A stretch of DNA of 64,000 bases from Flavobacterium saliperosum (GTDB taxonomy: Bacteria; Bacteroidota; Bacteroidia; Flavobacteriales; Flavobacteriaceae). Below are positions 5,938-55,965 of the stretch, one piece after another. Below the pieces are notes generated by a model that was given only the letters and a program-made list of their open reading frames with translations, made no database searches and was not told where the DNA came from. Position numbers and translations under genes: made by a program. The stretch lies in NCBI RefSeq assembly GCF_900100625.1, contig NZ_FMTY01000001.1, forward strand, positions 1 through 64,000, given 5' to 3'. Every line of letters starts with the position of its first letter. Within the stretch, counting starts at the first letter, position 1.

Positions 5938-6849
5938 TTAAAAAATCGACATTCCGGTTTTGGTGGTCAGTTGTTCCAACGCATACATTCCCATTTCGGA
6001 ATTTCCTTTTTCGTTCAAACGCGGACTCCACGTAGCCACCGAAAAATGCTGCGGAAACAAAGCACCGATACCACCACCGATACCACTTTTTCCGGGCAAT
6101 CCCACCTTATACGTAAACTCGCCCGATTCATCATAAAACCCGCAAGTTTGCATTAAAGCGTTGAGTCGCTTTACTTGACTTCGGGTTAAAATCTGTTGGC
6201 CGCTTTTGGTTTTTCCTTCATTGGCAAAAAAGAAAAAGGAATGTGCCAGTTCCTTACAGGTCATTTCCAATGAGCATTGGTGGAAATAAAAATCCAAAAC
6301 AACCTCCACATCATTCTCAATATTGCCGAACGACTTTAAAAAATTAGCCAAAGCCGCATTCCGGAATCCGGTATCTTTTTCCGATTGTGCCACTTTCAGG
6401 TTATAGGTAATGGTATCACAACCTGAAATCGTTCGGATAAAATCTAAAAAATCTTCTTTGGGATGTTCTAAATGGGTTACCAGCATGTCGGCAATCACCA
6501 ATGCGCCGGCATTAATAAACGGATTGCGCGGAATCCCTTTTTCGTATTCCAACTGCACCAACGAATTAAAAGGATTTCCTGAAGGCTCCACACCTACCCG
6601 TTCCCAGACTTTTTCCCCTAAAAAAGAAAAAGCCAAGGTAACTGTCAGGGCTTTGGAAACCGATTGTATGGAAAATTTTTCGTTACTGTCACCAATCCCG
6701 AAATCCTGTCCGTCAATTGTCGTAAGGTGCATTCCGAATTTATTGGAATCAACATTCGCTAATTCCGGAATCGTCGAAGCCACATTTCCGATAACCGGAA
6801 GTGCTTTGGTCTCCTGATGGATTTCCTGTAAAATAGCGTTGTAATTCAT
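5938..6849 (-). CDS. glsA: Glutaminase
   Basis: Hydrolyses glutamine to glutamate and ammonia. The 303 residues match the serine-dependent GlsA family, with the catalytic SxxK motif in FSIQSVSKALT near 64-67 and the family segments NPFINAGAL and GLPGKSGIGGGI. It is the third gene of a minus-strand run after cyanophycinase and isoaspartyl peptidase (15-base gap to the latter). That context suggests amino-acid nitrogen release rather than acid resistance; this is inference. Confidence 0.93.
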   Translation of the reverse strand: MNYNAILQEIHQETKALPVIGNVASTIPELANVDSNKFGMHLTTIDGQDFGIGDSNEKFSIQSVSKALTVTLAFSFLGEKVWERVGVEPSGNPFNSLVQLEYEKGIPRNPFINAGALVIADMLVTHLEHPKEDFLDFIRTISGCDTITYNLKVAQSEKDTGFRNAALANFLKSFGNIENDVEVVLDFYFHQCSLEMTCKELAHSFFFFANEGKTKSGQQILTRSQVKRLNALMQTCGFYDESGEFTYKVGLPGKSGIGGGIGALFPQHFSVATWSPRLNEKGNSEMGMYALEQLTTKTGMSIF

Positions 6850-8629: not shown

Positions 8630-8765
8630 TTGAAGCGAAGGGACAGTGATTATTTGGTCACCCTGTTCCCGCTTTCCGTTCCAATCTGTCATTGCGAGCT
8701 TGTACACAAGCTCACAAAGTCAGGATTTCCTCTACAATCGGGGCTAAAGAGGAAGGCCATACCTT
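8630..8765. repeat. Dispersed intergenic repeat, copy 2
   Basis: On the minus strand the unit reads AGCCCCGATTGTAGAGGAAATCC, then a hairpin with arms GAGCTTGT and ACAAGCTC (8692-8709), then GCAATGACAGATTGGAACGG and AAGCGGGAA. It shares its right half with 1-75. It sits between the divergent cyanophycinase and cyanophycin synthetase genes. The rest of this 338-base gap, up to 8919, is AT-rich and holds only presumed promoter DNA for cphA. Confidence 0.6.
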
Positions 8766-26062: not shown

Positions 26063-26135
26063 GACTCGGTAGCTCAGCTGGTAGAGCACATCACTTTTAA
26101 TGATGGGGTCCTGGGTTCGAATCCCAGCCGGGTCA
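26063..26135 (+). tRNA. tRNA-Lys (TTT anticodon), copy 1
   Basis: A 73-base cloverleaf. The acceptor GACTCGG pairs with CCGGGTC (one G-T pair). The D arm contains AGCTCAGCTGGTAGAGCA, the anticodon stem is CATCA/TGATG with loop CTTTTAA (anticodon TTT, 26096-26098), and the T arm is CTGGGTTCGAATCCCAG. CCA is not encoded. It is identical to the second copy. Confidence 0.97.
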
Positions 26136-26168
26136 CAAAAATGACCAAATTCATTTCCTGAAAGCAAC

Positions 26169-26241
26169 GACTCGGTAGCTCAGCTGGTAGAGCACATCAC
26201 TTTTAATGATGGGGTCCTGGGTTCGAATCCCAGCCGGGTCA
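26169..26241 (+). tRNA. tRNA-Lys (TTT anticodon), copy 2
   Basis: Same 73 bases as the copy at 26063, about 33 bases downstream, so both very likely come from one precursor. The anticodon is TTT and no CCA is encoded. Confidence 0.97.
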
Positions 26242-26284
26242 CGAAAAGTTAAGCACATTGCTTAACTTTTTTTGTTTACAGCAA

Positions 26285-26366
26285 GGCCACGTGGAGAAAT
26301 TGGTAGACTCGCCATCTTGAGGGGGTGGTGCTGCAAGGCGTATGGGTTCGAATCCCATCGTGGTCA
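26285..26366 (+). tRNA. tRNA-Leu (GAG anticodon)
   Basis: An 82-base class II tRNA. The acceptor GGCCACG pairs with CGTGGTC. The anticodon stem CCATC/GGTGG holds the loop TTGAGGG (anticodon GAG). A long variable arm (TGCTGCAAGGCGTA) and the T arm GGGTTCGAATCCC follow. CCA is not encoded. It is third in the tRNA operon. A 16-base copy of its 3' end lies 120 bases downstream. Confidence 0.96.
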
Positions 26367-26373
26367 CGAATAA

Positions 26374-35668: not shown

Positions 35669-35759
35669 TTTAGTTAAAAAATACTTTTAATAATGTGGGA
35701 GAAAAGCATAGAATTTACCCATACCCAAACCTTTTTTCCCGAAAGTTTGTTACTCGTTG

Positions 35760-35945
35760 TATTAGGCAGGTCTCCTGGCTTGCGTCCTGTTATCTCACCT
35801 TCCCATCGCGCTTTAGCGGACAGTGGCATGAAGAATAACAACAGGCTTTTTAGCTTACAGTTGCGGGTACAGCTTAGGTATTGCACCTAATTCCCTTTTA
35901 ATACGTCCCGATAAAATCGGGAGCATAACCTCAATACGGTGGCAA
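35760..35945 (-). ncRNA. Cobalamin riboswitch
   Basis: Read on the minus strand, the order is a P2/P3 region with GGGAATTAGGTGCAATACCT, the B12-box-like core AAGCTGTACCCGCAACTGTAA, CCACTGTCC...GATGGGAAGG, and AAGCCAGGAGACCTGCCT at the 3' side. These are the conserved blocks of the adenosylcobalamin riboswitch. It ends about 90 bases before the receptor start, so B12 binding should lower receptor expression by hiding its start or ending transcription. A short stem with GTCCCGA/TCGGGAC arms sits at its 5' edge (35908-35930). Confidence 0.93.
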
Positions 35946-36026
35946 ATATACTTCGAAGATTGAAATAATCTAATAAAATTTAAAGAAATAGTATTAATAC
36001 GTCATAAAAAACTGTAGAAATAAATT

Positions 36027-49915: not shown

Positions 49916-50137
49916 TTATTGATTTTGCGTTAATGATTCGATTTTAAATCCGGCGCTTTTAACCTGTTCTACCAGTGATTTTTCATCCAGATTTTCTAAT
50001 GCAACGGTTAAAATTTTGTCTTTGTGAGTCGTATTGACTTCCCATTGATTTTCCCCTAACAACGGATTTAAAACAGGCGTTACTTTGGCCACACAGCCTG
50101 AACAGTTTATATTGGTTTTGAATTGCTTTGTTTTCAT
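49916..50137 (-). CDS. Heavy-metal-associated (CopZ-like) copper chaperone
   Basis: A 73-residue HMA domain with the metal site NCSGCVAKV near 12-20 and the usual beta-alpha-beta length. It probably carries Cu(I) to CopA. It lies 95 bases after copA with its own upstream inverted repeat (50218-50232). It may therefore have a separate promoter as well as read-through, and is three bases from the DUF3347 gene. Confidence 0.88.
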   Translation of the reverse strand: MKTKQFKTNINCSGCVAKVTPVLNPLLGENQWEVNTTHKDKILTVALENLDEKSLVEQVKSAGFKIESLTQNQ

Positions 50138-50217
50138 TGTCGTATGTTTTAATGATTATTGTTATACAAATTTCGGATTTCTTTGCAGCGTTGTTGTTAC
50201 ACTATTACATTCAGGTT

Positions 50218-50232
50218 TTGTAACATTTACAG
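50218..50232. promoter_or_regulatory. Copper operator candidate, site before the HMA gene
   Basis: TTGTAACATTTACAG contains the inverted repeat TGTAA-N3-TTACA and touches the copA stop codon, 81 bases above the HMA start. Nearly the same 15 bases occur before copA. Confidence 0.5.
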
Positions 50233-52647
50233 TTATTTTTTGAGCTTCAGACGCAAGCTGTTACCTACTACACTTACAGAACTCAATGCCATCGCTGCAC
50301 CGGCAATCATCGGACTCAGTAAAAATCCGTTAACGGGATACAGGATGCCGGCAGCAATCGGGATTCCGATGACATTATAAATGAATGCCCAGAACAAATT
50401 TTGTTTGATGGTCGCCACCGTTTGTTTGGAAAGCAGAATGGCCTGCGGTACTTTCATTAAATCCGACGAAATAATGGTCATGTGCGCCACATCCATCGCT
50501 ATATCTGATCCTTTCCCCATAGCTATACTCACATTAGCCTGAGCCAAAGCCGCGCTGTCATTGATTCCGTCACCAACCATCGCTACGATTTTCCCTTCCG
50601 ATTGCAAGGTTTTGATGAAAGCCAATTTATCTTCGGGTAACACACTTGCTTTGAATCGGTTCAATCCCACGGTTTTGGCTACCGAAGCGGCCGTTTCCTC
50701 ATTATCACCGGTAAGCATAATGACTTCAATACCTTGTTTTTGGAGTTCCGAAACTGCAGCAATCGACGTTTCCTTAATTTTATCGGCTACAGCCAATATC
50801 GCTAAAAGAGTATTTCCTTTGGCAAAATACAATAACGTGTGCGCCAATTCGGCGTGCTTCGCAATAAACTCGGCATAATGCGTGTCTATGGTAATAGTGT
50901 TCTCGTTTAATAAACGTTTATTGCCCACAAAATAAATTTCGCCGTCAATAGTGGCTTTCACCCCGAATCCGGTGATACTTTCAAAATCCGAAACCGGTTG
51001 CGGCATGGTTCCCGAATACTGAGCGACAACCGCTTCCGCCAATGGGTGTTCCGATTGCAATTCGATGGAATACAAAGCTGCGATATGATTGGGCTGCGCC
51101 TCTTTCCATAACGAAGCTACAACAGAAGGTTTTCCTTCGGTGATTGTTCCGGTTTTGTCAAAAATAACGGTGTCTACTTTTTTTGCAAGTTCGAGACTTT
51201 CGGCGTCTTTTATCAGAATTCCTTTTTCGGCACCTTTCCCTACTCCAACCATTATGGCGGTTGGTGTGGCCAATCCCAAAGCACACGGACAAGCGATTAC
51301 CAAAACCGTAACCATAGCCAGCAATCCGTGAGTTAAGCCGTTTTCGCCCCCAAAAATTACCCAAACCAATAACGTCAGGATTGAAATTACCAATACGATT
51401 GGCACAAAGATTCCGGCAATTTTATCGACCAGTTTCTGAACCGGCGCCTTACTGCCCTGCGCATTTTGAACCATGGTGATGATTTGGGCTAACAAGGTTT
51501 CCGAACCTATTTTTTGAGCCGTATACTGCAAACTTCCTTTCTGATTGATGGTTCCGGCAAAAACGGTATCGTTGGGGTTTTTGGCTACCGGAATGGGTTC
51601 ACCGGAAATCATGCTTTCATCTACAAAAGAACTTCCCGACAGTACCTTTCCGTCTACCGCGATTTTTTCACCGGGTTTCGCTAAAAGCACGTCGCCCAAA
51701 ATCACGGAACTGATTTTCACTTCTTCCTGTTGTCCGTCTTTCATTAATCGGATTACGGTTTTAGGTTGTAATCCCACCAGTTTTTTGATGGCCGATGCTG
51801 TATTTCCTTTGGCGCGTTCTTCCAATACTTTTCCGAGAAGGATAAAGGTAATTACCACCGTTGCCGCTTCAAAATACACGTGAGCATGCAATCCCCGGCT
51901 ATGCCAAAACTCAGGATTCAACGTATTGAATACACTGAAAAGATAGGCAATACCCGTACTTAGCGCCACTAGGGTATCCATATTGGCTTTGCGGTGTTTC
52001 AGCTGTTTACAGGCGTTGATGAAAAAACTTTTTCCGAACCAAAACAAAACCGGAGTGGAAAATACCCACATGATCCAATTTCCATAAGGCATGTCCATAA
52101 AAAACATTCCGATGACAAAAACCGGTAAGGTAAACACGGCTGCGGCAATGGTTCTTCTCTTTAAAGCGGTAAACTGTTCGTTGTGCCGTTCGGCGATTTC
52201 ATCCTCCTGGCTTTCCGATTCGGTAATAATTAAATCGTAACCGATACTTTGAATCGCTTTTTTGAAATTTTCAGGTTTGGCAATTCCGGGAACATATTCG
52301 ACTGTTGCGGTAGCGTTGGCATAATTTACTACCGAGGAAATAATCCCTTCTTCAAAAGAAAGAATGCTTTCCACACTCACGGCACAGGAAGCACAAGTCA
52401 TGCCTTCTACCGGAAAACTTTTTTTCACCGTCGTAATGTCATAACCCAAATCACGAATTGTACTGGTGAGTTGAGCTAATTTAAATTGTTTGGGATCTAC
52501 CTCTATTTTTGCCTGTTGGTTGTTGAGTTCCACCTTGTGTGTTACAACGCCATCGGTTTTGGCAAGAGTATCATCCACAATGAGCGCGCAATGTTCGCTA
52601 TGTACACCTTCGAGAGGGATGGTAAGTATTTTAGAATTCGTTTCCAT
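50233..52647 (-). CDS. copA: Copper-translocating P1B-type ATPase
   Basis: Exports Cu(I) across the inner membrane. The 804 residues have two N-terminal HMA domains. The first has lost its metal pair (SEHCALIV, one Cys); the second is intact (GMTCASCAVSV near 82). The core shows the transmembrane CPCALGLATPT near 455, the phosphorylation site DKTGTITEG near 500, SEHPLAEAV near 540 and GDGINDSAAL near 695. It is the first structural gene of the copper operon. An inverted repeat lies 74 bases upstream. Confidence 0.95.
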   Translation of the reverse strand: METNSKILTIPLEGVHSEHCALIVDDTLAKTDGVVTHKVELNNQQAKIEVDPKQFKLAQLTSTIRDLGYDITTVKKSFPVEGMTCASCAVSVESILSFEEGIISSVVNYANATATVEYVPGIAKPENFKKAIQSIGYDLIITESESQEDEIAERHNEQFTALKRRTIAAAVFTLPVFVIGMFFMDMPYGNWIMWVFSTPVLFWFGKSFFINACKQLKHRKANMDTLVALSTGIAYLFSVFNTLNPEFWHSRGLHAHVYFEAATVVITFILLGKVLEERAKGNTASAIKKLVGLQPKTVIRLMKDGQQEEVKISSVILGDVLLAKPGEKIAVDGKVLSGSSFVDESMISGEPIPVAKNPNDTVFAGTINQKGSLQYTAQKIGSETLLAQIITMVQNAQGSKAPVQKLVDKIAGIFVPIVLVISILTLLVWVIFGGENGLTHGLLAMVTVLVIACPCALGLATPTAIMVGVGKGAEKGILIKDAESLELAKKVDTVIFDKTGTITEGKPSVVASLWKEAQPNHIAALYSIELQSEHPLAEAVVAQYSGTMPQPVSDFESITGFGVKATIDGEIYFVGNKRLLNENTITIDTHYAEFIAKHAELAHTLLYFAKGNTLLAILAVADKIKETSIAAVSELQKQGIEVIMLTGDNEETAASVAKTVGLNRFKASVLPEDKLAFIKTLQSEGKIVAMVGDGINDSAALAQANVSIAMGKGSDIAMDVAHMTIISSDLMKVPQAILLSKQTVATIKQNLFWAFIYNVIGIPIAAGILYPVNGFLLSPMIAGAAMALSSVSVVGNSLRLKLKK

Positions 52648-52720
52648 AATCTCTTATTGTTTGATGATACAAAGTTCCGTCAGATAACAAGAGAAAATAT
52701 TACAGGATTCTCATTACGAG

Positions 52721-52735
52721 TTGTAACTTTTACAG
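52721..52735. promoter_or_regulatory. Copper operator candidate, site before copA
   Basis: TTGTAACTTTTACAG holds TGTAA-N3-TTACA and overlaps the stop codon of the AraC-type gene. It matches 50218-50232 in 14 of 15 bases and lies at a similar distance from the next start. Both sites are followed on the minus strand by a TTTGTAT stretch about 30 bases before the gene. Confidence 0.5.
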
Positions 52736-53290
52736 ATGATCCAGCGGTACCCGTTTTTGCTGCCCTATGGATTTGAAATGCGAAGGGGTCAGTCCGGTTA
52801 CTTTTTTAAACTGATTGCTCAGATAGGCCACACTACTGTACCCCAATTGATTGGCGATTTCTTTTAATGACAGTTCATCATATACAATCAGTTCTTTTAC
52901 TTTTTCGATTTTTTGCAAAATCACATACTTTTCGATGGTGGTTCCTTCGACTTCCGAAAATAAATTACTCAGATAATTGTATTCGTAACCCAATTCGGAG
53001 GCTAAAAAATCAGACAAATTCGTTTTTAGGAGTTCTTTATCGTGATGGATAAACTGCACGATATGATTTTTAATCCGTTCTATCAACTGATGTTTTTTAT
53101 CATCGATAAGTTCAAATCCGATTAGCTGCAGTTGTTCCGAAAGTTTTACCCTGTCTGCATCCTGCAATGGGTTTTGAAACTCGATTTCTCCCAAAGTAAT
53201 CGTTTTATAGCTCAGATTCAGCGTATTCAGGATAGTTTCCACAGCCAAAACACAGCGATGGCAAACCATATTTTTAATGTATAATTTCAT
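52730..53290 (-). CDS. AraC-family regulator with N-terminal CxxC (HMA-like) domain
   Basis: A 186-residue protein. Residues 1-65 begin MKLYIKNMVCHRCVLAV, where M-x-C-x-x-C is the metal site of HMA domains, and run on like a beta-alpha-beta-beta fold. Residues about 85-180 are an AraC/XylS DNA-binding domain (LSLKEIANQLGYSSVAYLSN). It lies directly before copA on the same strand, so a Cu(I)-sensing activator of the operon is likely. This is inference from the fusion and position. Confidence 0.87.
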   Translation of the reverse strand: MKLYIKNMVCHRCVLAVETILNTLNLSYKTITLGEIEFQNPLQDADRVKLSEQLQLIGFELIDDKKHQLIERIKNHIVQFIHHDKELLKTNLSDFLASELGYEYNYLSNLFSEVEGTTIEKYVILQKIEKVKELIVYDELSLKEIANQLGYSSVAYLSNQFKKVTGLTPSHFKSIGQQKRVPLDHL

Positions 53291-53379
53291 CGTAATTCGT
53301 ATTAGGTTAAAATTACGATTTTTATTGATACCATATCAAGGGAAGGAATTGTAATCGAACTATCAGAAAAAAATTGAAC

Positions 53380-53513
53380 AAAAAAAGAGGCCTTTTAACG
53401 GGCCTCTCTTACAGTATTCTGATTTACTATTGTCTATTACTATTCAAGCACATCGACATTCAAATACATTCTCTTTTCACGGAAGAATAAATTCAAATAA
53501 CAAATCAAAATCC
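53380..53513 (-). ncRNA. Putative small RNA, tandem family unit A
   Basis: About 134 bases. On the minus strand, TACATTTA (53527-53520) resembles a -7 box. The body has a closing stem GATTTGTTATT / AATAGTAAATC (11 pairs with G-T, 53506-53496 with 53431-53421), and the end is the terminator GAGGCC / GGCCTC plus T7. It is one of five head-to-tail relatives. No open frame covers it. It could be a 6S-like RNA or something new. Confidence 0.6.
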
Positions 53514-53573
53514 GTTTAGTAAATGTACAACTTATTTTGATACAAAGCATTGATATCCAAAATTTTAACTTTT

Positions 53574-53711
53574 AAAAAAAAGGAGGCCCGTTAGACCTCC
53601 CTATGTATGTTTTGATTCATTACGTTGAATTCATACCTCTATTTAGGCAGAACTTACGACTGAACATTCTTTTGTCGTTGGACTTGGATCTGTTCAATAA
53701 CCAATCAAAAC
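53574..53711 (-). ncRNA. Putative small RNA, tandem family unit X
   Basis: About 138 bases, diverged from unit A. It has TAAATTTG (53725-53718) as -7 box, closing stem GTTTTGATT / AATCAAAAC (53711-53703 with 53617-53609), and inner stem ACGAC / GTCGT around AAAAGAATGTTCA. The terminator is GGAGG / CCTCC plus T8. It shares the TTTTGATT-GTTATT-GAA start and AAAAGAATGT core with the A, B, C type. Confidence 0.55.
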
Positions 53712-53769
53712 CACATTCAAATTTACGTATTTTAAAATCACAAAACACTAACTACCAAAACTTTATCAC

Positions 53770-53904
53770 AAAAAAAGAGGCCTTTTAACGGGCCTCTCTT
53801 ACAGTATTCTGATTTACTATTGTCTTTTTACTATGAAAGTAAACCGACATTCAAATAAACTCTCTTTTCACGGAAGAATAAATTCAAATAACAAATCAAA
53901 AACC
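53770..53904 (-). ncRNA. Putative small RNA, tandem family unit B
   Basis: About 135 bases, nearly identical to unit A in the first 40 and last 60 bases. The upstream block ends TACATTTA (53918-53911). The closing stem and GAGGCC terminator are identical to A. The middle differs but keeps pairing (TTTACT / AGTAAA), where C has TTCCACTAT / ATAGTGAAA at the same place. Confidence 0.6.
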
Positions 53905-53972
53905 GTTCAGTAAATGTACAACTTATTTTAATACAACATACTATTAATCAATAATTTAACATTATAAAACAC

Positions 53973-54102
53973 TAAAAACCCTCTGACTCCTTTTTATCAT
54001 GTTTTGATCCATTACTTGAATCCTTCTATAGACAGGCCGAGCGAACGACTGAACATTCTTTTGTTCTTGTGTCCGGATTTGTTCAATAACCAATTAAAAC
54101 TA
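53973..54102 (-). ncRNA. Putative small RNA, tandem family unit Y (degenerate)
   Basis: A relative of unit X. The core AAAAGAATGTTCAGTCGTT and the arms TTTTAATT...GATCAAAA (54100-54001) are kept, and AUCC/GGAU pairs inside the stem. The terminator is broken (GGAGTCAGAGGG before T5) and no good -7 box is seen, so it may be a dying copy. Confidence 0.4.
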
Positions 54103-54156
54103 TAGTCCCATTCATGCAATTTTAAAAACATAAAATACTCATTATCAATTTTAAAC

Positions 54157-54292
54157 AAAAAAAGAGGCCTTTTAACAGGCCTCTCTTACAGTATTCTGAT
54201 TTACTATTATCCTTTCACTATAATAGTGGAAACGACTTTCGAATAGATTCTCTTTTCACGGAAGAATAAATTCAAATAACAAATCAAAAACC
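54157..54292 (-). ncRNA. Putative small RNA, tandem family unit C
   Basis: About 136 bases, first in the direction of transcription. The upstream block ends TATCTTTA (54306-54299). The closing stem is the same as A and B. The apical stem CACTAT-T-ATAGTG is perfect although its sequence differs from B, as expected if pairing is selected. The terminator is GAGGCC / GGCCTC plus T7, and its loop differs by one base. Confidence 0.6.
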
Positions 54293-54597
54293 GTTCAATA
54301 AAGATACGACTTATTTCGACAATTAATACTGAATATCAATATTTTAACACTTAAATACTATTAAGTCCTTAGCTTGAAAACTTGACAGATAATCCGCATC
54401 TTGTCTTATGATGAAAATATAACACAATTGCTCTTTAACAAACAATAATTCATGTTAAAATATTATTTAGTGAAAAATAATTACTTTTTTAATTAAATTA
54501 AAATAAAATTATTAAATTGTAAACGATTAAGGAAGTATGCCCCAAAAATACTGTTCGCAACACTTTTACAAAAATTTTAAACCAATAAATGCTGTAA
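54293..54597. other. Intergenic, AT-rich, no gene seen
   Basis: Holds the conserved upstream block of unit C (to about 54325). The rest is AT-rich DNA with no supported frame before the RCC1-repeat gene; its promoter is not obvious. Confidence 0.5.
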
Positions 54598-55965
54598 ATG
54601 AAAAAAACGTTACTTCTCGCTTCTGTATTCCTCTGCTCGAATACATTTGCAACAGCCCAGTGTTGGGAATCGATATCAGCAAAAAATGGTCAATCCGCTG
54701 CCATTAAAGAAGACGGCACCTTATGGACCTGGGGCTTTAATGGTCAGGGACAATTGGGTGACGGAACAACAGTAAGCCGAAATGTACCCGTATTGATTTC
54801 TTCGGACACCAATTGGAAAAAAGTATCTTCGGGTTACAATCATATGGTAGCGTTAAAATATGACAATACCATTTGGTCATGGGGCTCTAACAGCTCGGGA
54901 CAGTTGGGCAACGGAACCAATATTGACAACCATTTTCCAATGCAGTCCAACCCGGAAACCAATTGGAGCTCCATTGCCAGTGGCGCCAATCATACCTTGG
55001 CACTAAAATCAGATGGTACCTTATGGGCCTGGGGTAGTAATTCCTATGGTGCTTTAGGTAACGGCAGCACGATTAATCAAAGTTCACCGATACAAATCGG
55101 TTTCGATACCGATTGGCAATGGATCAGTGCAGGAGAAAACAATTCGTTTGCCATAAAAACAAACGGAACACTTTGGGCTTGGGGCGATAATGCCAATGGA
55201 AAATTAGGAAACGGAAACACGGCATACCGACTCACTCCCACTCAAATAGGCACCGATACGAATTGGGCAAAAATAAATGAAGGCTATTTACACACGGTTG
55301 CCATCAAACAAAACGGCACCTTATGGAGCTGGGGCTGGAATGCTTACGGACAATTAGGAGATAACACATTAACAGACAAATGGATACCTACCCAAATCGG
55401 TACCGATACTGATTGGCAAAACGTTAACGCTGGAGGTTATCATACTTTGGCTATAAAAACCAACGGCACTTTATGGGCTTGGGGATACAATACTTTTGGA
55501 CAATTGGGTATTGGTTCCAACAGTCATAAAATTTACCCAACGTTAGTCGGAACATCAAATAACTGGTCTGACATTGCCTTATCCTTTCAACATACCATTG
55601 GTGTAAACACCGGTTCCGAACTGTTTGCCTGGGGATTAAATTCCGATGGCAGATTGGGCATTGGCTCCAATTCAAATCGAAATTACCCAACTAGTGTGAT
55701 CTGTAGCAATTTAAACAACATAAATTTCAGTCAGATCAGTTCATTCATCCTTTATCCTAACCCTGCAACGGACATGATTTCAATCCAAAATACCGAAAAC
55801 AAGAATATAGAAACCGTTCTTTTGTATGATATCGTCGGAAAAAAAATCAAAGAGTTAACCGGTAATGTATCACAAATCGATGTTAAGGATTTGCAAAACG
55901 GGATGTATCTGGTACACATCAATGCCGACAAACAAAATCATACGTTAAAATTCATAAAACGCTAA
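54598..55965 (+). CDS. Secreted RCC1-repeat protein with T9SS sorting domain
   Basis: A 455-residue protein with a signal peptide (to about 21). Seven RCC1-like repeats of about 50 residues follow (each with xLWxWGxNxxGQLGxGT), predicting a seven-bladed propeller, about 25-370. Residues about 383-455 are a type A T9SS C-terminal domain (FILYPNPATDMISI...GMYLVHINAD...HTLKFIKR). It should therefore be exported through the outer membrane and anchored or released. The binding partner is unknown. Confidence 0.9.
   Translation: MKKTLLLASVFLCSNTFATAQCWESISAKNGQSAAIKEDGTLWTWGFNGQGQLGDGTTVSRNVPVLISSDTNWKKVSSGYNHMVALKYDNTIWSWGSNSSGQLGNGTNIDNHFPMQSNPETNWSSIASGANHTLALKSDGTLWAWGSNSYGALGNGSTINQSSPIQIGFDTDWQWISAGENNSFAIKTNGTLWAWGDNANGKLGNGNTAYRLTPTQIGTDTNWAKINEGYLHTVAIKQNGTLWSWGWNAYGQLGDNTLTDKWIPTQIGTDTDWQNVNAGGYHTLAIKTNGTLWAWGYNTFGQLGIGSNSHKIYPTLVGTSNNWSDIALSFQHTIGVNTGSELFAWGLNSDGRLGIGSNSNRNYPTSVICSNLNNINFSQISSFILYPNPATDMISIQNTENKNIETVLLYDIVGKKIKELTGNVSQIDVKDLQNGMYLVHINADKQNHTLKFIKR

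What the first reader, a model, noticed from the sequence alone, without database searches (positions are those of the whole stretch)
53380..54292. Five tandem, paralogous small RNA genes in one intergenic region
Seen: units A, B, C repeat every 388-389 bases, and units X and Y sit between them. All point to the minus strand. Four carry a strong GC hairpin with a T run at the 3' side, and the upstream ends have TAnnTTTA/G-like boxes. Each can form a long closing stem (GATTTGTTATT/AATAGTAAATC in A, B, C; GTTTTGATT/AATCAAAAC in X). In the apical arm the sequences differ while pairing is kept (TTTACT/AGTAAA in B, CACTAT/ATAGTG in C). X and the A type share the TTTTGATT-GTTATT start and the AAAAGA(G)AATGT core. 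No frame is conserved. Inference: an amplified family of structured RNAs, perhaps 6S-like, perhaps new.
Basis: partly seen in the sequence, partly recalled or inferred. Interest (0 to 1): 0.9.

Follow-up and report, generated by a model that had tools for sequence, protein, structure and literature searches.

The report
Tandem stress-linked small RNA gene family
Four predicted small-RNA genes in a row, with a fifth decayed copy, belong to a structured RNA family that recurs in related (likely Flavobacterium) genomes, often in tandem arrays, matched nothing in our searches of the Rfam catalogue, and is likely switched on by a stress-sensing two-component system.

Summary
On the minus strand lie units A, B and C (about 91% alike), X (a divergent relative) and Y (a decayed copy of X). 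A, B, C and X fold far better than shuffles and each has a promoter-like box and a terminator; Y does not. They belong to one structured RNA family: a covariance model found it in 84 of 299 genus genomes, 37 with two or more copies, up to seven; 396 other genomes sampled over the family gave only weak hits. In a fitted alignment 29 of 39 pairs change on both sides. No Rfam match; the genome's 6S RNA lies elsewhere, so "6S-like" is rejected. New link: 92 of 113 units carry GTTAAW-N5-GTTAAW repeats upstream. The same operator precedes degP (29 of 29 orthologues) and an RprXY-like two-component operon (30 of 30), but 0 of 304 background genes. Likely reading: a multicopy stress sRNA family, comparable to Listeria LhrC. 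Weak points: in the window itself A, B and C keep one good half-site and X none; expression and targets are untested; identity with the published sRNA Rfp18 could not be tested.

The parts
54157..54295 (-). Unit C, predicted sRNA gene with terminator
   Evidence: CM 129.9 bits (in the model seed); fold z -5.7
53770..53907 (-). Unit B, predicted sRNA gene with terminator
   Evidence: CM 118.7 bits (in the model seed); fold z -5.4
53380..53516 (-). Unit A, predicted sRNA gene with terminator
   Evidence: CM 114.6 bits (in the model seed); fold z -5.1
53576..53716 (-). Unit X, divergent member, predicted sRNA gene with terminator
   Evidence: CM 84.8 bits (in the model seed); fold z -5.4
53973..54105 (-). 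Unit Y, decayed copy of X without clear terminator or -7 box
   Evidence: CM 18.5-19.1 bits; fold z +0.5; 76% identity to X over 53999-54130
54299..54306 (-). -7 box of C, TATCTTTA
   Evidence: sequence; such a box precedes 111 of 113 units
53911..53918 (-). -7 box of B, TACATTTA
   Evidence: sequence
53718..53725 (-). -7 box of X, TAAATTTG
   Evidence: sequence
53520..53527 (-). -7 box of A, TACATTTA
   Evidence: sequence
54343..54348 (-). retained operator half-site GTTAAA upstream of C
   Evidence: 53 nt before the unit, near the usual place of the proximal half-site of the family operator
53955..53960 (-). retained operator half-site GTTAAA upstream of B
53564..53569 (-). retained operator half-site GTTAAA upstream of A

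Best explanation
The locus is a tandem array of four intact predicted small-RNA genes and one decayed copy, members of a structured RNA family found in many genomes of the genus with no match in our Rfam searches, which likely act as trans-acting regulatory RNAs switched on by an RprXY-like two-component stress system. Shown by calls: the family, its tandem arrays, its paired structure (a long closing stem P1 of about 17 bp, two arms P2 and P3 at a three-way junction, then a GC terminator), a Bacteroidota-type -7 box in front of 111 of 113 units, and in most relatives examined a direct-repeat operator that also precedes degP and the rprXY-like operon. Inferred: each unit is transcribed alone as an RNA of about 135 nt; the repeats bind the RprY-like OmpR-family regulator; this regulator activates (the sites lie upstream of the expected -33 region); the RNAs then adjust envelope or stress mRNAs by base pairing, with P1 and terminator as shared scaffold and the faster-changing P2/P3 arms as the likely target-specific part. 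In the window's own lineage the operator is eroded, so control by this system may be weakened or changed here.
For: Family and tandem state: 84 of 299 genus genomes at E<=0.01; 37 of those 84 with two or more matches, up to 7 (G007, G223) (10 places scored per genome). In 50 sources chosen among the hits, 113 units; 27 of 50 sources hold 2-7 units, in all 27 on one strand, median spacing 332 nt. Structure: 92.1% of cells paired against 85.4% in shuffles, 280 double-changed cells against 79, 29 of 39 pairs with both-sided change; slid controls 36-53% paired (alignment fitted to the structure); RNAalifold on an alignment not fitted to the model recovers P1 and the terminator. Promoter: TAnnTTT(G/A) in 111 of 113, TAnnTTTG in 96 of 113, 86 of these 96 at exactly -9. 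Operator: 92 of 113 units match at least 11 of 12 positions, 89 of these 92 starting at -61 to -64 with 11-bp period, against 57 of 2260 shuffled stretches. Shared regulon: degP orthologues, one in each of the 29 genomes that had a match, 29 of 29 score 16.0-17.2 (maximum 17.2), the 8 other degP-like genes 2.8-7.4; background genes 0 of 304 at 14 or more, best 13.3; rprX-rprY-like operons 30 of 30 at 14.8, 28 of them at -57; pstS-like 0 of 20 (best 9.4), phoB-like gene 5.2 and 8.6. The regulator's best NCBIfam model is RprY, 282 bits against 164 for the next. The Trans_reg_C search found 3 such regulators in the own genome and 2 in G036; two are shared.
Against: No expression data. In the window the operator is degenerate: A 9, B 10, C 10, X 9 of 12, the level of shuffled DNA, although A, B and C each keep a perfect GTTAAA at -53. 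Over whole genomes the two-half-site pattern is not enriched over its reversed control (31 against 33 in four genomes), and for 4 of the 23 matches outside arrays that I annotated no downstream gene was found (one of the four lies inside an ORF). The RprY call is below the curated cut-off (282 against 370 bits). The degP and rprX promoters compared are related by descent, and all 30 genomes were chosen because they carry the family; genomes without it were not tested. P2 and P3 were not recovered by the unfitted RNAalifold run. No targets were predicted. 7 of 50 sources, the window among them, have no unit with 11 or more operator matches.
Confidence: 0.55

Rival explanations
1. The family is the already published sRNA Rfp18 (or another Rfp RNA) of F. 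psychrophilum; Rfp18 is needed for precise expression of metalloproteases and is predicted to pair through its third stem-loop.
For: PMC9723704 (abstract, passages and section 20 read): Rfp18 is conserved in the genus, strongly folded, and its predicted pairing region is the third stem-loop; in this family the third stem-loop would be the terminator hairpin. The function would be compatible with the present reading.
Against: The parts read give no sequence or coordinates of Rfp18, and supplements could not be opened. They do not mention tandem copies of it. Rfp11 is unlikely because its promoter is listed as SM6 type.
Confidence: 0.35
2. 6S-like RNAs that bind RNA polymerase by mimicking an open promoter.
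For: Length and a long closing stem; multi-copy 6S exists in some bacteria (recalled).
Against: A separate 6S-Flavo gene lies at C19:95116-95222 (85.3 bits); no 6S match for any unit at E<=10; three-way junction with two arms instead of one bulged hairpin.
Confidence: 0.03
3. A mobile or selfish repeat (MITE-like) that happens to fold.
For: Copy number varies; dispersed copies exist (L152, L157, L185), one beside integrase-like genes (L163).
Against: 29 of 41 examined loci sit beside rdgB and 7 at an rmuC site; all units of an array share one strand (27 of 27); promoter, terminator and mostly operator are kept at fixed places; only 27 of 90 units in multi-unit sources have their nearest relative in the same source, so many paralogues are old. 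No match in phage records (173-nt window query) or plasmid records (138-nt relative query).
Confidence: 0.05
4. Structured sRNAs controlled by a regulator other than the RprY-like protein, or acting by titrating a protein rather than by pairing with mRNA.
For: Little unpaired sequence; the most conserved sequence lies in P1 and the terminator rather than in loops, which suits protein recognition. Regulator identity rests on operator sharing only.
Against: The operator precedes the rprX-rprY-like operon itself in 30 of 30 genomes, as expected for autoregulation; the phoB-like gene lacks it in both genomes looked at. Other regulator classes were not tested.
Confidence: 0.3

Closest known systems
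LhrC family of Listeria monocytogenes (PMC7602753, passages read)
   Different: Other phylum, no sequence relation known; here a three-way-junction scaffold, arrays up to seven, an RprY-like rather than LisR operator; targets unknown here
FopS, 14-member paralogous sRNA family of Bacteroides thetaiotaomicron (PMC11697453, passages read)
   Same: Multicopy sRNA family in Bacteroidota from canonical sigma-A-type promoters, possibly enhanced by an unknown regulator under membrane stress
   Different: FopS has a single-stranded 5' stretch with the seed followed by a terminator, and its genes are intergenic, antisense or 3'-UTR-derived; here both ends are closed by P1 and genes are tandem
Rfp18 sRNA of Flavobacterium psychrophilum (PMC9723704, abstract, passages and section 20 read)
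   Same: Genus-conserved, strongly folded Flavobacterium sRNA
   Different: Identity not testable here; no tandem copies of it mentioned in the parts read
MicA, RybB, CpxQ (envelope-stress sRNAs of enterobacteria; PMC7602753, passages read)
   Same: Noncoding arm of a stress regulon; CpxR is, like the inferred regulator, an OmpR-family protein, with GTAAA direct repeats (recalled)
   Different: Single genes, exposed seeds (recalled); MicA and RybB Hfq-dependent; no sequence relation known
6S-Flavo RNA (RF01685)
   Same: Bacteroidota RNA of similar length
   Different: No model match; present separately in the same genome

Membership tests
6S-Flavo (RF01685) | Match to the Rfam covariance model | tested here: not met
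   No unit reaches gathering score or E<=10; the genome's one match is elsewhere
Any Rfam 15 family | Match at gathering score or a strong E-value | tested here: not met
   Window array best 33.2 bits for a streptococcal sRNA, gathering 60; 16 relative loci at E<=1: four matches, none inside the array units (three Flavo-1, one miRNA model)
Rfp18 | Sequence or locus identity with the F. psychrophilum RNA | not testable with these tools
   No sequence in the parts read; supplements could not be opened; one search did not identify the species
FopS | Single-stranded 5' seed region followed by terminator | tested here: not met
   The 5' end pairs with the 3' strand of P1 in the consensus
Multicopy stress sRNA (LhrC-like way of working) | Several paralogous copies in one genome | tested here: met
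Multicopy stress sRNA (LhrC-like way of working) | Promoter controlled by a stress-sensing two-component system | tested here: inconclusive
   Operator shared with rprXY-like operon and degP in relatives; eroded in the window; no binding or expression test
Multicopy stress sRNA (LhrC-like way of working) | Base-pairing repression of surface-protein mRNAs | not tested
RprY response regulators | NCBIfam RprY equivalog model above curated cut-off | tested here: not met
   Best model but 282 bits against cut-off 370; hence 'RprY-like'

The most novel reading that the evidence does not exclude
An undescribed tandem sRNA family of the genus forms the noncoding arm of an RprXY-like envelope-stress regulon in Flavobacterium, with degP as the protease arm: one conserved closed three-way-junction scaffold multiplied into up to seven genes whose arms have diverged to address different mRNAs.
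Probability: 0.4. Interest if true: 0.78.

Novelty: new member of a known kind. Interest (0 to 1): 0.62.

Why it matters
Bacteroides is reported to lack obvious Hfq and ProQ homologues (PMC7366714, passage read), and the control of flavobacterial sRNAs is little known. A multicopy family with a readable operator gives a direct handle: it names a candidate regulator (RprY-like), a co-regulated protease (degP) and a scaffold with variable arms, so that the question of how these bacteria run a noncoding stress response can be tested in a tractable laboratory strain.

Tried and rejected
6S-like RNA: rejected. Peptide genes: at most 4 of 113 units have any one frame open over the first 110 nt; median longest start-to-stop ORF 13 codons. 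Homologues outside the genus: 397 genomes sampled over the family gave the own genome plus 12 weak matches, E 4e-4 to 1e-2. 8 of these 12 loci were searched again and alignments of 7 of the 8 printed: they score mainly on the terminator, with poor or missing P1 and arms. I count none; L193, from another genus of the family, has a P3-like helix (36.9 bits) and stays doubtful. 80 loci around relatives of the neighbouring AraC gene gave 3 weak matches, E 0.018-0.49. Phosphate control (11-bp repeats recall a Pho box): not supported, pstS-like 0 of 20 upstreams read, of 25 matches. Copper control through the neighbouring copA/AraC genes: not supported, because 29 of 41 loci lie at rdgB without them. 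Flavo-1: separate elements. Literature: ten searches, whose listings showed no title or abstract describing this family; in PMC3646045 the words motif, consensus, binding site, htrA, DegP and GTTAA do not occur.

Corrected on re-reading: one search counted one degP orthologue (G138) as a paralogue because the start codon was set too early, and read 30 of 37 matches; one search read all 37 and gives 29 orthologues and 8 others. Its split rests on the first 38 matched residues; one gene (G141, second match) was printed as orthologue on a weak score (45 against 22) but has a different N-terminus, and I count it among the 8.

Dropped before counts: 2 of 24 regex finds as spurious when the seed was made; 2 of 113 units without a -7 box from the operator matrix; the window from the 304 background genes, which come from loci around the arrays (ORFs of 150 aa or more), not from a random genome sample.

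Full report
What was checked. The intergenic stretch 53291-54597 lies between an AraC-type regulator (52730-53290, minus; Pfam) and a predicted secreted protein with RCC1-like repeats (54598-55965, plus; name recalled from its repeats). On the minus strand it holds, in the direction of transcription, C, Y, B, X and A. A, B and C have a mean column identity of 91% and repeat at 387-391 nt. X and Y repeat in the same register and are 75-76% alike over their shared part, so the duplicated block held one A-type and one X-type unit (inference). A, B, C and X fold 5.1 to 5.7 standard deviations below shuffles; Y does not.

It is one family. A covariance model (R1) was built from 22 units: A, B, C, X and 18 units in loci found by DNA search of 150 genus genomes (7 and 12 of 150 with hits, the own genome included; seed). 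In the window it scores C, B, A and X at 129.9, 118.7, 114.6 and 84.8 bits, which they do by construction; the next matches are at 23.5 bits or less, and Y scores 18.5. In 299 genus genomes 84 have matches at E<=0.01 (77 of 253 good assemblies), 37 of the 84 with two or more, up to seven. Ten places per genome were scored with strict filters, so counts are lower bounds. A second model (R2, 113 units) in 397 genomes spread over the family found the own genome and 12 weak hits, which I judge to be mostly terminator matches (one doubtful, see Tried and rejected). At this sensitivity the family is restricted to the genus.

Structure. The 113 units share P1 (17 modelled pairs, UUUUGAUU with AAUCAAAA strongly conserved), arms P2 and P3 on a three-way junction, and a GGAGG-CCUCC terminator with a T run. 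Of 39 pairs, 29 show changes on both sides; 92.1% of cells pair against 85.4% in shuffles and 36-53% with slid partners; no shuffle of 500 reaches any of the five measures. That alignment was fitted to the structure. On a MAFFT alignment of 50 units, one per source, RNAalifold recovers P1 and the terminator but not P2 and P3, so the arms are less certain. Single-sequence folding of A, B and C nevertheless draws two arms on P1.

Genomic setting. In 41 loci (40 regions from 36 genomes chosen among the positives, plus the window) the array lies beside, or within one short ORF of, rdgB (Ham1 family) in 29; a DEAD-box helicase gene (26 loci) and an NYN/OST-HTH gene (28 loci) are frequent neighbours. 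Seven loci, the window included, sit at another site near rmuC, three of them also beside the AraC/copA genes; 4 are elsewhere and 1 is cut by a contig end. All units of a source share a strand in 27 of 27 multi-unit sources; median spacing 332 nt. Mean identity is 68% within sources and 61% between; within sources it is 77-82% for P1 and terminator but 55-58% for the arms (between: 75% and 46-50%). Only 27 of 90 units in multi-unit sources have their closest relative in the same source. Many paralogues are therefore old; close relatedness of some sampled genomes adds to this number.

Promoter and operator. TAnnTTT(G/A), the Bacteroidota -7 box (TAnnTTTG consensus as given in PMC9723704, passages read), lies just upstream in 111 of 113 units, and TAnnTTTG at exactly -9 in 86. 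Further upstream, GTTAAW-N5-GTTAAA direct repeats with 11-bp period lie at -53 and -42 from the -7 box, with a weaker third element near -31. 92 of 113 units match at least 11 of 12 positions, against 57 of 2260 shuffled stretches. 30 genomes that carry the family were then examined. 29 of them have degP-like genes at E<=1e-60, 37 in all. The matrix from the sRNA promoters scores the 29 orthologues, one per genome, at 16.0 or 17.2 (maximum 17.2) and the 8 other degP-like genes at 2.8-7.4 (which corrects). No background gene of 304 reaches 14. A search for OmpR-family DNA-binding domains found three genes in the own genome and two in G036, of which two are shared. One, an RprY-like protein with its kinase gene upstream, has the repeat GTTAAT-N5-GTTAAT in front of the kinase gene in 30 of 30 genomes; the other, PhoB-like, does not in the two genomes read, nor do 20 pstS-like genes. 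NCBIfam ranks RprY first, below its cut-off. In P. gingivalis RprY is tied to oxidative and sodium stress (PMC5706477, passages read). The inference is an RprXY-like, self-regulated stress regulon that includes degP and, in most relatives that carry it, the sRNA arrays.

What speaks against it. In the window's own units the operator is not better than in shuffled DNA when both half-sites are scored (A 9, B 10, C 10, X 9 of 12), although A, B and C keep a perfect GTTAAA at -53 and the own degP and rprX-like promoters are intact. L173 and L186, at the same site, are eroded too (10, 9 and 9 of 12). The simple pattern is not enriched genome-wide (31 matches against 33 reversed in four genomes). 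Genomes without the family were not examined. Expression, binding and targets are untested.

Comparison. The nearest ways of working are Listeria LhrC (multicopy, LisRK, envelope stress; PMC7602753, passages) and Bacteroides FopS (14 paralogues; PMC11697453, passages). By anatomy it does not fit FopS: here the 5' end is closed in P1 and genes are tandem; LhrC sequences were not compared beyond the Rfam search. Rfp18 of F. psychrophilum (PMC9723704) is genus-conserved and folded and may be the same RNA; this could not be tested. The listings of the ten literature searches named under Tried and rejected showed no description of tandem sRNA arrays or of this operator in Flavobacterium; subscription journals and supplements were out of reach.

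Verdict. A real, widespread, structured RNA family with a tandem habit; likely a stress-controlled regulatory sRNA; not 6S. Confidence is high for the RNA family (about 0.95), moderate for the regulator across the genus (about 0.6), lower for the window's own control and for the pairing mechanism.

Noticed in passing
35748-35949 (minus): Cobalamin riboswitch, 98.8 bits.
   Followed up: no
8661-8749 (minus): Flavo-1 RNA, 58.9 bits; Flavo-1 matches also lie in three relative loci that hold array units (L094, L104, L095), apart from the units.
   Followed up: partly
26063-26367 (plus): Two tRNA-Lys(TTT) genes and a tRNA-Leu(GAG) in a row.
   Followed up: no
49916-53290 (minus): Short metal-binding-like protein, copper-type P-type ATPase (names recalled from sequence) and an AraC-type regulator downstream of the array; their homologues also lie beside the units in L173 and L186.
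   Followed up: partly
L163 (unit at 6013-6151): A dispersed unit (107 bits, 12 of 12 operator positions) lies among integrase-like and element-like genes (names recalled from sequence), so units may travel on mobile islands.
   Followed up: no
L152 and L157: Two genomes carry dispersed units beside what looks like the same 169-aa gene, a third recurring site.
   Followed up: no
L208, L213, L214; L215, L220; L209, L229: Exact operator pairs recur upstream of an aldo/keto reductase-like gene (3 genomes), a small membrane-protein-like gene (2 genomes) and a TetR-like gene (2 genomes); possible further regulon members (names recalled from sequence).
   Followed up: no
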